NCBI RefSeq assembly: GCF_000270245.1
Contig: NC_015635.1
Location: 1,612,001-1,676,000, forward strand
DNA from: Microlunatus phosphovorus NM-1
GTDB taxonomy: Bacteria > Actinomycetota > Actinomycetes > Propionibacteriales > Propionibacteriaceae
DNA: 64,000 nucleotides
Reading direction: 5' to 3'
Below are positions 8,356-12,154 of the stretch, piece by piece. Made by a program: the position numbers and the translations under genes. The notes beneath the pieces were generated by a model. That model ran no database searches. It saw only the letters and a list, made by a program, of their open reading frames with translations, and had not been told where the DNA came from. Within the stretch, counting starts at the first letter, position 1. Each line of letters starts with the position of its first letter.

Positions 8356-9420
8356 TCACTGGTCCATCCTCTCGCCCTGGTGTGCGCTGTCCTCGTGGAC
8401 GAGGACGACTCCGGTGGGGCTCGGCAGGTCGAGCACGGTTGCCGGAGCGTCGGGCGGCAGTGGGGAGACCTCGAAGACCGCCACCGTATGGCTGCTCTCG
8501 TTGGACACCCACAGCAGCCCGCCGTCGAGGGTGATCGCCCGCGGCCAGACCCCGCCACAGTCGAACTCCGCGACCGGTGTCAGCGTGCTCTCGATGGGGT
8601 CCAGATCGAAGGCGGCGACGGTGTCGACGCCGCGGCTCGCCACATAGATCCGGCTGCCGTCGGTGTCGATGCCCGAGGGCTGCACATGCCCGTCTCTGGT
8701 CGAGGTCGGCACGACATCGGCCTGCACCCAGTCGTTCCCGTGCCGTTTCCCGAGCCACAGCTGTCCGCTGAGCTCCAGTGCGACCACCAGGTGATCCTGG
8801 GCGACCACCAGATGCCGTGGACCGGAGCCCGCCGGAAGCCGGATCGGATCGTGGGCCGGATAGAGCACTCCCTCGGAGGTCAGACGCAGCCGGTGGATCT
8901 GGTCGCCGCCGAGGTCACAGCACAGGATCTCGTCGCCGACCATCACGATCTGGTGTGCGTGCGGGCCTTCCTGCCGATCGGTCACTGGACCGCTCCCGAC
9001 CAGCCCGAGGTGGTCGCCGAGCTTGGCGAGCGTGCCGTTCGCGGCGATCGCGACCACCGACACGATCCCGGACACGTAGCTCGCCACTATCGCGTGCCGG
9101 CCGTCTTTGGTGATCGCGAAGTGGCAGGCCCCGTCGCCGGCGACTTCGACGGTCGAAAGAAGTGTCAGCGAGCCGTCGCCATTCCAGCGCAGGCTGCTGA
9201 GTGTGCCGGGGTTGGTCTCCCCGGCGGCCAGCAACACCGGCAGATTGGGGTGGCGGACGAGCCAGGTGGGGGAGCGAAGCTCCGCGACGGCGACCGGGTC
9301 GAGCTGCACCTGGCGCCCGGATCCGACGTTCAGCAGCGAGGTGACGCCGGTAGCGGTGCCACCGGCTTCAGCCGTATAGCCGCCGACGAAAACGTGACGC
9401 AGACCAGATGTGGAGGACAC
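8356..9420 (-). CDS. lactonase-family seven-bladed beta-propeller protein (6-phosphogluconolactonase-like)
   Basis: The GTG start at 9420 gives 354 residues. The sequence shows repeated beta-propeller blades with the phrases V-F-V-G-G-Y-T near the start, G-D-G-A-C-H-F-A around 100, G-P-H-A-H-Q-I, G-P-R-H-L-V, Q-P-S-G-I-D and W-P-R-A-I-T-L-D-G. These match the lactonase family (YbhE/Pgl type). The likely role is hydrolysis of a sugar lactone such as 6-phosphogluconolactone in the pentose phosphate pathway, but the family also includes proteins of other function. It is followed directly by def and is divergent from xerC with only 49 bp between the starts. Confidence 0.85.
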   Translation of the reverse strand: MSSTSGLRHVFVGGYTAEAGGTATGVTSLLNVGSGRQVQLDPVAVAELRSPTWLVRHPNLPVLLAAGETNPGTLSSLRWNGDGSLTLLSTVEVAGDGACHFAITKDGRHAIVASYVSGIVSVVAIAANGTLAKLGDHLGLVGSGPVTDRQEGPHAHQIVMVGDEILCCDLGGDQIHRLRLTSEGVLYPAHDPIRLPAGSGPRHLVVAQDHLVVALELSGQLWLGKRHGNDWVQADVVPTSTRDGHVQPSGIDTDGSRIYVASRGVDTVAAFDLDPIESTLTPVAEFDCGGVWPRAITLDGGLLWVSNESSHTVAVFEVSPLPPDAPATVLDLPSPTGVVLVHEDSAHQGERMDQ

Positions 9421-9469
9421 GCCGTCTTGGATATCACACGGCACCGACTGCGGGCCGCACAGTGGACAG

Positions 9470-10396
9470 GTGGAATCTGATGTCCTGCCGCCGGTGCTGC
9501 GGCAGACGCTGGACGACTACGTCGATCATCTGACCCGCGACCGAGACGTATCCGAGCACACCGTGCGGGCCTACCGCGGCGACCTGTTCGATCTCTTTGC
9601 TCACCTGCAGCGACTCGGTGCAGACGATTTGTCCGGTCTGACGGTCCGATCGCTGCGATCCTGGCTCGCTAATCAGCAGACTCGCGGGCGGGCGCGCGGC
9701 ACCCTGCAGCGGCGGACCGCCGCCGTCCGGGTGTTCGGTCGCTGGGCGGTGCAGACCGGTCGCCTGACCGAGGATCCTGCTGCCGGCCTCCGGTCGCCGA
9801 AGCGGGTTCGTTCGCTGCCGCCGACGCTGGAGAGTGCTGATGCGGCGGCGATGCTGGCCGAGGCATTGACCGTTGCCGCCGAGGGGGGCGGCCCCAGCGC
9901 GGACCGTGACGTGGCGATCCTCGAGTTGCTCTATGCCACCGGTATCCGGGTCTCCGAGCTGTGCGGTCTCGATCTGGGCGATCTGGCTGAGGGACGACAG
10001 ACGGTACGGGTGCTTGGCAAGGGCAACAAACAACGCACCGTGCCGTACGGGAACCCGGCCGCCCGGGCCTTGAATGCCTGGCTGGCGGTACGCGGTCAGC
10101 TGGCGGTGCCTGAGGCTGGCGCGGCGGTCTTCGTCGGGGATCGTGGCAAGCGGATCGATCAGCGGGTGGTACGCCGGATCGTCCATCGCGCCCTGCGGGT
10201 GGTCGATGGTGCACCCGACCTGGGGCCGCACGGGTTGCGGCATGCGATGGCTACCCATCTGCTCGAGGGCGGTGCCGACCTGCGCAGTGTTCAGGAACTC
10301 CTCGGCCACGCATCTCTGGCCACGACGCAGATCTATACCCACGTCTCCGATGCCCGGCTGCGCGCCGCCTTCCAGCAAGCCCATCCCCGCGCCTGA
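9470..10396 (+). CDS. xerC: tyrosine recombinase XerC
   Basis: The product is 308 residues from GTG 9470. It has an N-terminal SAM-like core-binding domain (about 1-105) and a C-terminal catalytic domain. The catalytic set is complete: R160 (A-T-G-I-R-V-S-E-L), K184 (L-G-K-G-N-K-Q-R), H254 and R257 (H-G-L-R-H), H280 (L-L-G-H-A-S) and the nucleophile Y289 (T-Q-I-Y-T-H-V). Length and position upstream of rpsB match the actinobacterial chromosome-dimer-resolution XerC rather than a phage integrase. No att site or dif site was recognised nearby. Confidence 0.92.
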   Translation: MESDVLPPVLRQTLDDYVDHLTRDRDVSEHTVRAYRGDLFDLFAHLQRLGADDLSGLTVRSLRSWLANQQTRGRARGTLQRRTAAVRVFGRWAVQTGRLTEDPAAGLRSPKRVRSLPPTLESADAAAMLAEALTVAAEGGGPSADRDVAILELLYATGIRVSELCGLDLGDLAEGRQTVRVLGKGNKQRTVPYGNPAARALNAWLAVRGQLAVPEAGAAVFVGDRGKRIDQRVVRRIVHRALRVVDGAPDLGPHGLRHAMATHLLEGGADLRSVQELLGHASLATTQIYTHVSDARLRAAFQQAHPRA

Positions 10397-10419
10397 ACCT
10401 GGTGTGCGATGGCTCGACG

Positions 10420-11010
10420 TCAGCTGTGAGCGTCGGGATCGCGTTTGTGCTCGACCAGATCGTCGGCGATCTGCCCGGAATGAGCGGAGAAGACCTGGGT
10501 TTCCACGCCCAGACGCTCCATCCGTTGGACGAAGGCGACGTGGTGTTGGTCGAAGAGTTCGAGGCGCTCCTGGATGTACTTGTCCGACGCCCTCCACTTC
10601 CGATCGAGTTCTTGCCAGCGTCGGTCGCTATCGTCCAGCCGCTCGTTGAACTGCTTGGCGGACTGCTTGCGCTGTCGGTCGTAAGCCTGGAGCTGAGCGT
10701 CGAACTCGCGCACTGACTTTTCGAACTTTCGGTCGCGCTCGGCAAACCGTTCATCGAACTCGCGTCCGGATTCGGCGAGCTTGGCGTCGAACTCTCTCCT
10801 GCGCTCGGCAAGCTGCTCATCGAACTCGCGCTCGGTCTTGGCGAGCTTCTTGTCGGATGTGCGTTCGGACTCGGCAAGCTTGGCGTCGAACTCCCGCCTC
10901 GTCTCAGCGAGCCGCTGGTCCGCCTTCTCCAACTCCACGAGAAACTGCTCGTGGTGCTCGTCGAGCACCCGTAGCCGCGCCGCGAACTCCTCGTCGTTCA
11001 TCTCGGGCAT
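10420..11010 (-). CDS. highly charged coiled-coil protein with hendecad repeats
   Basis: The product is 196 residues, with RBS AAGGAG about 10 bp before ATG 11010. Residues 28-104 consist of seven consecutive 11-residue units with the pattern R-E-F-D-x-x-L-A-E-x-x (REFDAKLAESE, RTSDKKLAKTE, REFDEQLAERR, REFDAKLAESG, REFDERFAERD and variants). An 11-residue period is the signature of a right-handed (hendecad) or surface-lying helix rather than a normal heptad coil. The rest is also helical and very polar, with no membrane segment. The function is unknown. It sits between the M23 gene and xerC, 27 bp after the M23 stop but on the same strand and transcribed after it. Confidence 0.8.
   Translation of the reverse strand: MPEMNDEEFAARLRVLDEHHEQFLVELEKADQRLAETRREFDAKLAESERTSDKKLAKTEREFDEQLAERRREFDAKLAESGREFDERFAERDRKFEKSVREFDAQLQAYDRQRKQSAKQFNERLDDSDRRWQELDRKWRASDKYIQERLELFDQHHVAFVQRMERLGVETQVFSAHSGQIADDLVEHKRDPDAHS
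10699..10929. repeat. tandem 33-bp repeats encoding the hendecads
   Basis: Seven imperfect 33-bp units in tandem inside the coiled-coil gene; adjacent units share segments such as GGCGTCGAACT and CTCATCGAACTCGCG. The period equals exactly eleven codons, so the array grew or shrank without changing frame. It is a coding repeat; spacer-like unique segments are absent, which excludes a CRISPR array. Confidence 0.75.
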
Positions 11011-11037
11011 CCCTTCACCGCTCCTTCGTCAGGGTAC

Positions 11038-12036
11038 TCAGAACATCGTCATGGGGTTGGCGAGGCGGCCGTTGACCCAGAGCATCAGGTGCAGGTGACA
11101 GCCGGTGGAATAGCCCGTGGTGCCGACGTACCCGAGCAGCTGCCCACGCTTGACCACGGTGCCGCGGGACACGACATAGCGCGTCGCATGGTTGTAGCCG
11201 GTCCGGATCTGCCGACCGTTGATCTTGTGGTCCAGCATCAGCCGATGCCCGTAAGCGGAGTTGTAGTAGACGCTGGCCACCCGGCCGTCGGCGGGAGCGC
11301 GGATCGGGGTGCCGCAGGCGGCGCCGAAGTCGGTCCCGTCGTGCAGCTTCCAGACGTGCAGCACCGGGTGGAACCGCATCCCGAACGGCGACGTGATCCC
11401 ACCGGGCACGGGTCGGGACAAGCCTCCCCGCGTGGTCGGAAGACTGACGAACGTACTCACCTCCTGCTCGGCGACCCGGGCCTCGACTGCGCGCCCAGCC
11501 GCTCGCCGGGTCGCTGTCGGGGTTTGATCGGCCGGCAGCAGTCGCAGCACGGATTCGCCACCGATCATCAACAGCGGATTGAGATACGTGTCGCCGCGCT
11601 TGAGACCCCAGTGCAGACAGTGCCCGCTGCAATGGCCGCCGCTGCCGATCCGGCCGATCACCGCACCCGCTTTGACCTGGTCGCCGACCGCAGCCAAGGG
11701 CTCCACCGGCTCATACGTCGTGCGCACCGATCCGTGGTCCACGACCACCACTCCGCGCCCGGCCAGTCGACCCGCATAGGTCACCCGACCGCCCGCTGCC
11801 GCCAGCACGGCAGCCCCACGGTGTGCGGCCAGATCGACTCCCCGATGCCCGGCCAGCCAGCGTTGCGCCGGTGGATCGAAACCCTCGATCACTCGCACGG
11901 CACCCGTCAGTGGCCATTGCCCGCGCGGAACGGCCTCGGCGACCGCAGGCGTCGGGGTCGAGGCCAGGAGCAGCGCGGTCAGCGCCATCGTGAGGACCGC
12001 CAGCCGCCAGAACGTCAGATTCAGAGGGAGCTTCAC
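11038..12036 (-). CDS. secreted M23 peptidase with two LytM domains
   Basis: The GTG start at 12036 gives 332 residues; the first 33 form a signal peptide (F-W-R-L-A-V-L-T-M-A-L-T-A-L-L-L-A). Domain 1 (about 40-160) has the zinc ligands H64 and D68 and the box C140-L-H142-W-G, so the first His of the usual H-x-H is Cys. Domain 2 (about 212-332) has H232, D236 and a complete H314-L-H316. The second domain is therefore the likely active peptidoglycan endopeptidase, and the first may be weak or regulatory, though a C-L-H-W-G box is typical of the actinobacterial homologue found upstream of rpsB. A single M23 domain is usual here; the tandem arrangement is notable. Confidence 0.85.
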   Translation of the reverse strand: MKLPLNLTFWRLAVLTMALTALLLASTPTPAVAEAVPRGQWPLTGAVRVIEGFDPPAQRWLAGHRGVDLAAHRGAAVLAAAGGRVTYAGRLAGRGVVVVDHGSVRTTYEPVEPLAAVGDQVKAGAVIGRIGSGGHCSGHCLHWGLKRGDTYLNPLLMIGGESVLRLLPADQTPTATRRAAGRAVEARVAEQEVSTFVSLPTTRGGLSRPVPGGITSPFGMRFHPVLHVWKLHDGTDFGAACGTPIRAPADGRVASVYYNSAYGHRLMLDHKINGRQIRTGYNHATRYVVSRGTVVKRGQLLGYVGTTGYSTGCHLHLMLWVNGRLANPMTMF

Positions 12037-12154
12037 ACCCAGACAATGCGTACGTCGGCACTGTTTCGTACGGCCCCTTCGGCAATCTGTGGATGACGCT
12101 CGAGACGCCACAGAGCCTGTGGATAACTGTGCCGGACCGGCTCGCGGGATCGGC

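What the first reader, a model, noticed from the sequence alone, without database searches (positions are those of the whole stretch)
10420..11010. Protein built of 11-residue repeats between xerC and the M23 gene
Seven consecutive hendecads R-E-F-D-x-x-L-A-E-x-x predict a right-handed coil or membrane-surface helix, unusual in a small cytosolic protein. The 33-bp DNA period implies repeat expansion.
Basis: partly seen in the sequence, partly recalled or inferred. Interest (0 to 1): 0.5.

Follow-up and report, generated by a model that had tools for sequence, protein, structure and literature searches.

The report
Orphan hendecad-repeat helical rod protein
A small bacterial protein, predicted to be one very long helix of 11- and 18-residue repeats, sits where related bacteria have nothing or unrelated genes; it is probably an ordinary coiled-coil rod, of interest mainly because no relative of it turned up.

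Summary
The ORF is real: window 10420-11010, minus strand, 196 aa, 27 bp behind the M23 gene and convergent with xerC. The hendecads are real but overcounted: five consecutive units (residues 38-92) are in register, six with a weak one at 27-37; REFD stands in four of the five. From residue 93 the unit becomes 18 residues (7+11). In 26-92 the hydrophobic periodicity is 11/3, not 7/2 (power 11.4 against 0.4); in 93-164 it is about 18/5. A membrane-surface helix is not favoured. The 33-bp DNA period mostly follows from the amino-acid repeat; only the 66-bp lag shows extra DNA identity. New here: both ends carry a similar 25-residue segment (around LDxHHxxF). No homologue was found in any collection searched. 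Of 19 other same-genus genomes, nine have only 17-112 bp at this site, five hold other ORFs, and five could not be read. Best explanation: a lineage-restricted, cytosolic, self-associating coiled-coil rod, probably transcribed with the M23 gene by position only. New member of a known kind; low interest.

The parts
10420..11010 (-). 196-aa ORF (gene X), predicted to be one helix from residue 6 to 190
   Evidence: AlphaFold2 from a single sequence, mean pLDDT 90.9, pTM 0.46
10735..10899 (-). five hendecads in register, residues 38-92 (consensus xREFDxxLAEx)
10900..10932 (-). weak first hendecad, residues 27-37 (LEKADQRLAET)
10573..10734 (-). three 18-residue (7+11) units, residues 93-146
   Evidence: lag-18 identity, units listed, periodicity near 18/5
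10924..10998 (-). N-terminal copy of the end segment, residues 5-29
   Evidence: matches residues 142-166 with score 49; 0 of 2000 phase-preserving shuffles reach it
10513..10587 (-). C-terminal copy of the end segment, residues 142-166 (overlaps the last 18-residue unit)
11021..11026 (-). AAGGAG Shine-Dalgarno-like site, 10 nt before the ATG
   Evidence: read from the sequence
11038..12111 (-). M23 peptidase ORF upstream on the same strand (true start uncertain, first listed start given); its stop lies 27 bp before gene X
   Evidence: Pfam PF01551, E 8.3e-44; coordinates
9410..10396 (+). XerC-like tyrosine recombinase gene, convergent, ends 23 bp from the stop of gene X
   Evidence: Pfam PF00589, E 8e-43; best NCBIfam model XerC, 313 bits, below its cut-off of 335

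Best explanation
Gene X encodes a soluble, cytosolic, lineage-restricted coiled-coil rod. Each chain is one long helix (about 185 residues) whose hydrophobic stripe (F and L, with S/T/R in the third core place of the array) runs nearly straight, first with 11/3 and then with about 18/5 periodicity. Two or more chains pack along this stripe. The similar end segments (around LDxHHxxF) would let chains pair antiparallel or join end to end, so that the rod acts as a passive spacer or small scaffold. The gene was gained at a site between xerC and the M23 gene where relatives carry nothing or other ORFs, and is probably transcribed behind the M23 gene because of where it landed. Shown: the ORF, repeats, periodicity, end match, site variability and absence of detected homologues. 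Inferred: oligomerisation, the way of pairing, transcription with M23, gain rather than loss, the scaffold role.
For: Hydrophobic residues (VILMFWY) peak at period 3.65 in residues 26-92 and 3.575 in 93-164, each with 0 of 500 shuffles as strong; with Ala counted as hydrophobic the shuffle fractions are 0.012 and 0.026. AlphaFold2 gives a single helix 6-190. 2 prolines and 3 glycines in 196 residues, pI 5.3, GRAVY -1.33. End segments alike, 0 of 2000 phase-preserving shuffles. Codon-position GC 0.71/0.34/0.81, like neighbouring genes at positions 1 and 3. SD site and 27-bp spacing to M23. In the closest genome (XerC 79%, M23 75%) the site holds 112 bp without detected similarity to gene X.
Against: No homologue, so no evidence of conservation across species. 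Between the five units, differences fall at codon positions 1, 2, 3 as 40, 30, 41 of 110, which shows no clear purifying selection on the unit. The third core place is polar, so the stripe is thin (VILMFWY 16% in 26-92). A long helix from a single-sequence AlphaFold run is weak evidence and says nothing on oligomers. No promoter-like site was found, though that scan suits few actinobacterial promoters (recalled).
Confidence: 0.55

Rival explanations
1. A stable single alpha-helix (SAH): a monomeric, highly charged rigid helix held by i/i+3 and i/i+4 salt bridges.
For: 54% charged residues in 26-146, with 42 opposite and 28 like charge pairs at i+3/i+4.
Against: The excess of opposite pairs is not clear (P 0.056 against shuffles), and there is a significant hydrophobic stripe with large F, L and W residues.
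Confidence: 0.2
2. A spurious or recently born ORF with no selected function, kept open by the repeat and by high G+C content.
For: No relative found; no purifying signal between units; overlapping frames of the same DNA are also open.
Against: AAGGAG site at 10 nt, GC by codon position like neighbouring genes at positions 1 and 3, helix-compatible composition throughout, end match.
Confidence: 0.15
3. A membrane-surface amphipathic helix.
For: Helical moment 0.29-0.46 in the windows of the array. The membrane factor (formula and threshold of 0.68 recalled) is passed by one array window (0.71 at residue 55) and by three later ones (0.99 at 109, 0.76 at 127, 0.77 at 136).
Confidence: 0.07
4. 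A diverged FilP/Scy-like cytoskeletal protein.
For: Hendecads; an actinobacterial host (recalled from genome size and gene order, no call names it).
Against: The DivIVA-like motif GY[DN]xx[QE]V[DN] is absent; no DivIVA family among Pfam matches at E up to 1.
Confidence: 0.03

Closest known systems
FilP and Scy (DivIVA-like group, actinobacterial hendecad coiled coils)
   Same: Long hendecad-containing coiled coil in one chain; group members range from under 200 to over 1000 residues (passages of PMC9858780)
   Different: No DivIVA-like N-terminal motif; Phe/Leu rather than Ala-rich stripe; 18-residue units; similar ends
Small bacterial hendecad proteins of unknown function (recalled, from no call)
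   Same: Short end segments around an 11-residue array
   Different: No sequence relationship was detected or could be tested
phrog_9415 (unknown function)
   Same: E 9e-6 over residues 17-108
   Different: The profile also rings in 10 of 14 control genomes, so the match reads as coiled-coil composition

Membership tests
Hendecad coiled coil | Repeat of 11 residues with hydrophobic periodicity 11/3 | tested here: met
   Residues 26-92: power 11.41 at 11/3, 0.40 at 7/2; not met in 93-164, where 18/5 is the strongest of the named periods
Hendecad coiled coil | Chains associate through the hydrophobic stripe | not testable with these tools
   Single-chain prediction only
FilP/Scy/DivIVA-like | N-terminal GYDxxEVD motif before a heptad coil | tested here: not met
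   No match to GY[DN]xx[QE]V[DN] (pattern from PMC9858780)
Single alpha-helix (SAH) | Dense charge with clear excess of i/i+3, i/i+4 opposite pairs and little hydrophobic stripe (definition recalled) | tested here: inconclusive
   Charge 54%, excess P 0.056, but stripe present
Amphipathic membrane helix | Hydrophobic, cationic amphipathic helix (definition recalled) | tested here: inconclusive
   Array windows low in hydrophobicity and not cationic; three later windows pass the recalled threshold by charge
Any Pfam, NCBIfam or PADLOC family | Match above the curated cut-off (Pfam, NCBIfam) or a specific match (PADLOC) | tested here: not met
   Best Pfam 14.5 bits against 27.8; no NCBIfam match reaches its cut-off; PADLOC best E 0.0013, to a MukB-like model

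The most novel reading that the evidence does not exclude
A recently born, species-level orphan gene that grew by internal duplication of an 11/18-residue unit with matching end caps into a new self-assembling filament or scaffold protein, inserted behind a cell-wall peptidase gene.
Probability: 0.12. Interest if true: 0.45.

Novelty: new member of a known kind. Interest (0 to 1): 0.2.

Why it matters
If true, it is a compact example of a coiled-coil protein confined to one lineage, with an 11-residue array that changes to 18-residue units and with similar ends, at a site that varies between close relatives. It could serve as a test case for how coiled-coil rods arise and lengthen. It does not point to a new kind of system.

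Tried and rejected
Heptad periodicity: rejected for residues 26-92. phrog_9415 as a family: rejected as unspecific. Two weak genome hits (E 5.8e-4 and 9.9e-4): both rejected after reading the loci. In L003 the match lies on minus-strand ORFs made of a glycine-rich WDERVGEGGRG repeat, itself 11 residues long but not helix-like; in L002 it lies inside a frame whose end resembles a DNA alkyltransferase by eye and that holds one chance REFD. PDB sequence search: only weak matches to coils (best E 0.034, Tektin). A paralogue in the own genome: none at E up to 1. DNA expansion at 33 bp: no excess over codon permutation; of 10 unit pairs one (60/82) has P 0.01. A DNA search of plasmids with window 9380-12060 gave 27 records; the 20 listed match xerC or M23 only, none the stretch of gene X. 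Literature searches on hendecads and on Microlunatus phosphovorus listed no paper that by title or abstract start is about this protein; I read only passages of PMC9858780, the rest as search listings. I ran no fold search, because one long helix would match any coil.

Full report
The object. The frame at window 10420-11010 on the minus strand encodes 196 residues. An AAGGAG site lies 10 nt before its ATG (read). The M23 gene on the same strand ends 27 bp before it, and xerC on the other strand ends 23 bp from its stop. GC by codon position is 0.71, 0.34, 0.81; the seven neighbouring genes measured have 0.70-0.78, 0.42-0.54, 0.75-0.91. Positions 1 and 3 look like the neighbours; position 2 is low, as expected from the many D, E, K and R codons (inference).

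The repeats. Lag-11 identity in residues 26-93 is 0.47, and no shuffle among 2000 exceeds 0.26. From residue 93 the unit is 18 residues, 7+11. Hydrophobic periodicity (VILMFWY): residues 26-92, power 11.41 at 11/3 and 0.40 at 7/2; residues 93-164, 10.35 at 18/5, 5.49 at 7/2 and 3.71 at 11/3; residues 6-164, peak at 3.61.

DNA-level expansion. With own codons permuted within amino acids, DNA identity at lag 11 codons is as expected (P 0.33), and at lag 22 it is higher than expected (P 0.016 for identity, 0.0026 for shared codons); with codon usage pooled from seven neighbouring genes and gene X the lag-22 values are 0.079 and 0.028. Of ten unit pairs one has P 0.01. So the 33-bp period by itself does not show expansion; duplication of a 66-bp double unit is possible.

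Similar ends. Residues 5-29 and 142-166 align without gaps with score 49; shuffles of the C-terminal part reach at most 44 in 1000, and shuffles that keep hydrophobic and polar places reach at most 46 in 2000. I noticed this pair by eye before testing, but the test scanned all diagonals of the two end regions. What the ends do is inference.

Structure. AlphaFold2 from the single sequence gives one helix 6-190, mean pLDDT 90.9, pTM 0.46. No oligomer could be modelled.

Relatives. No accepted match in 57 genomes of relatives (3 matched at E 0.001: the window's own and 2 chance hits, dissected), in the own genome beyond itself, in 396 genomes of the phylum at E 1e-6, in 198 of the family at E 0.001, and in 391 of the order with the C-terminal half. 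These counts include the window's own genome and overlap with each other. None either in viral contigs, plasmids, phages or genome contigs twice. The contig scans use short exact peptide patterns and so reach close relatives only. The genome's size, 5,683,123 bases, is what I recall for Microlunatus phosphovorus NM-1; no call confirmed the name.

The site. One search found xerC at E up to 1e-60 in 32 of 34 genomes. Of the 19 same-genus genomes other than the window's own, nine have xerC-M23 gaps of 17-112 bp (G001, G005, G010, G011, G014, G016, G017, G018, G019), five have 416, 518, 2067, 2132 and 2329 bp (G003, G015, G013, G006, G007), three showed no M23 match within the stretch read (G004, G009, G012) and two had no xerC match (G002, G008). 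ORFs in the five larger gaps are unlike gene X by eye. Gaps outside the genus were also computed, but I do not use them: there the M23 match covers only part of the protein in most, and two gaps came out negative. In G005, the closest, BLAST finds the xerC and M23 flanks but no significant match in between. Gene X was therefore either gained in the window's lineage or lost elsewhere; gain is the simpler reading.

What is known. PMC9858780 (passages) states that hendecads give very slight supercoiling, that they have remained largely unexplored, and that FilP and Scy carry them. Gene X lacks the DivIVA-like motif of that group. Library matches are all below curated cut-offs or unspecific.

Verdict. 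A real hendecad protein, ordinary in kind, restricted in distribution as far as searched; most likely a self-associating rod, with a role as spacer or scaffold that is inferred only.

Noticed in passing
window 11038-12111: The M23 protein has two M23-like stretches. By eye the second keeps HxxxD and HLH (motifs recalled), while the first has C in place of the first His of that pair, so the first may be inactive.
   Followed up: no
L036, L039, L040 (xerC-M23 gap in G013, G007, G006): The same site holds gaps of about 2.1-2.3 kb with ORFs that by eye resemble aldo/keto reductases, an FAD-dependent oxidoreductase and beta-lactamase-like serine hydrolases, so the site varies in content within the genus.
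   Followed up: partly
L012 and L017 (xerC-M23 gap in G015, G003): Both gaps hold a minus-strand ORF (138 and 120 aa) alike by eye (WFAVRCLF...YEERITLWRA) and unrelated to gene X.
   Followed up: no
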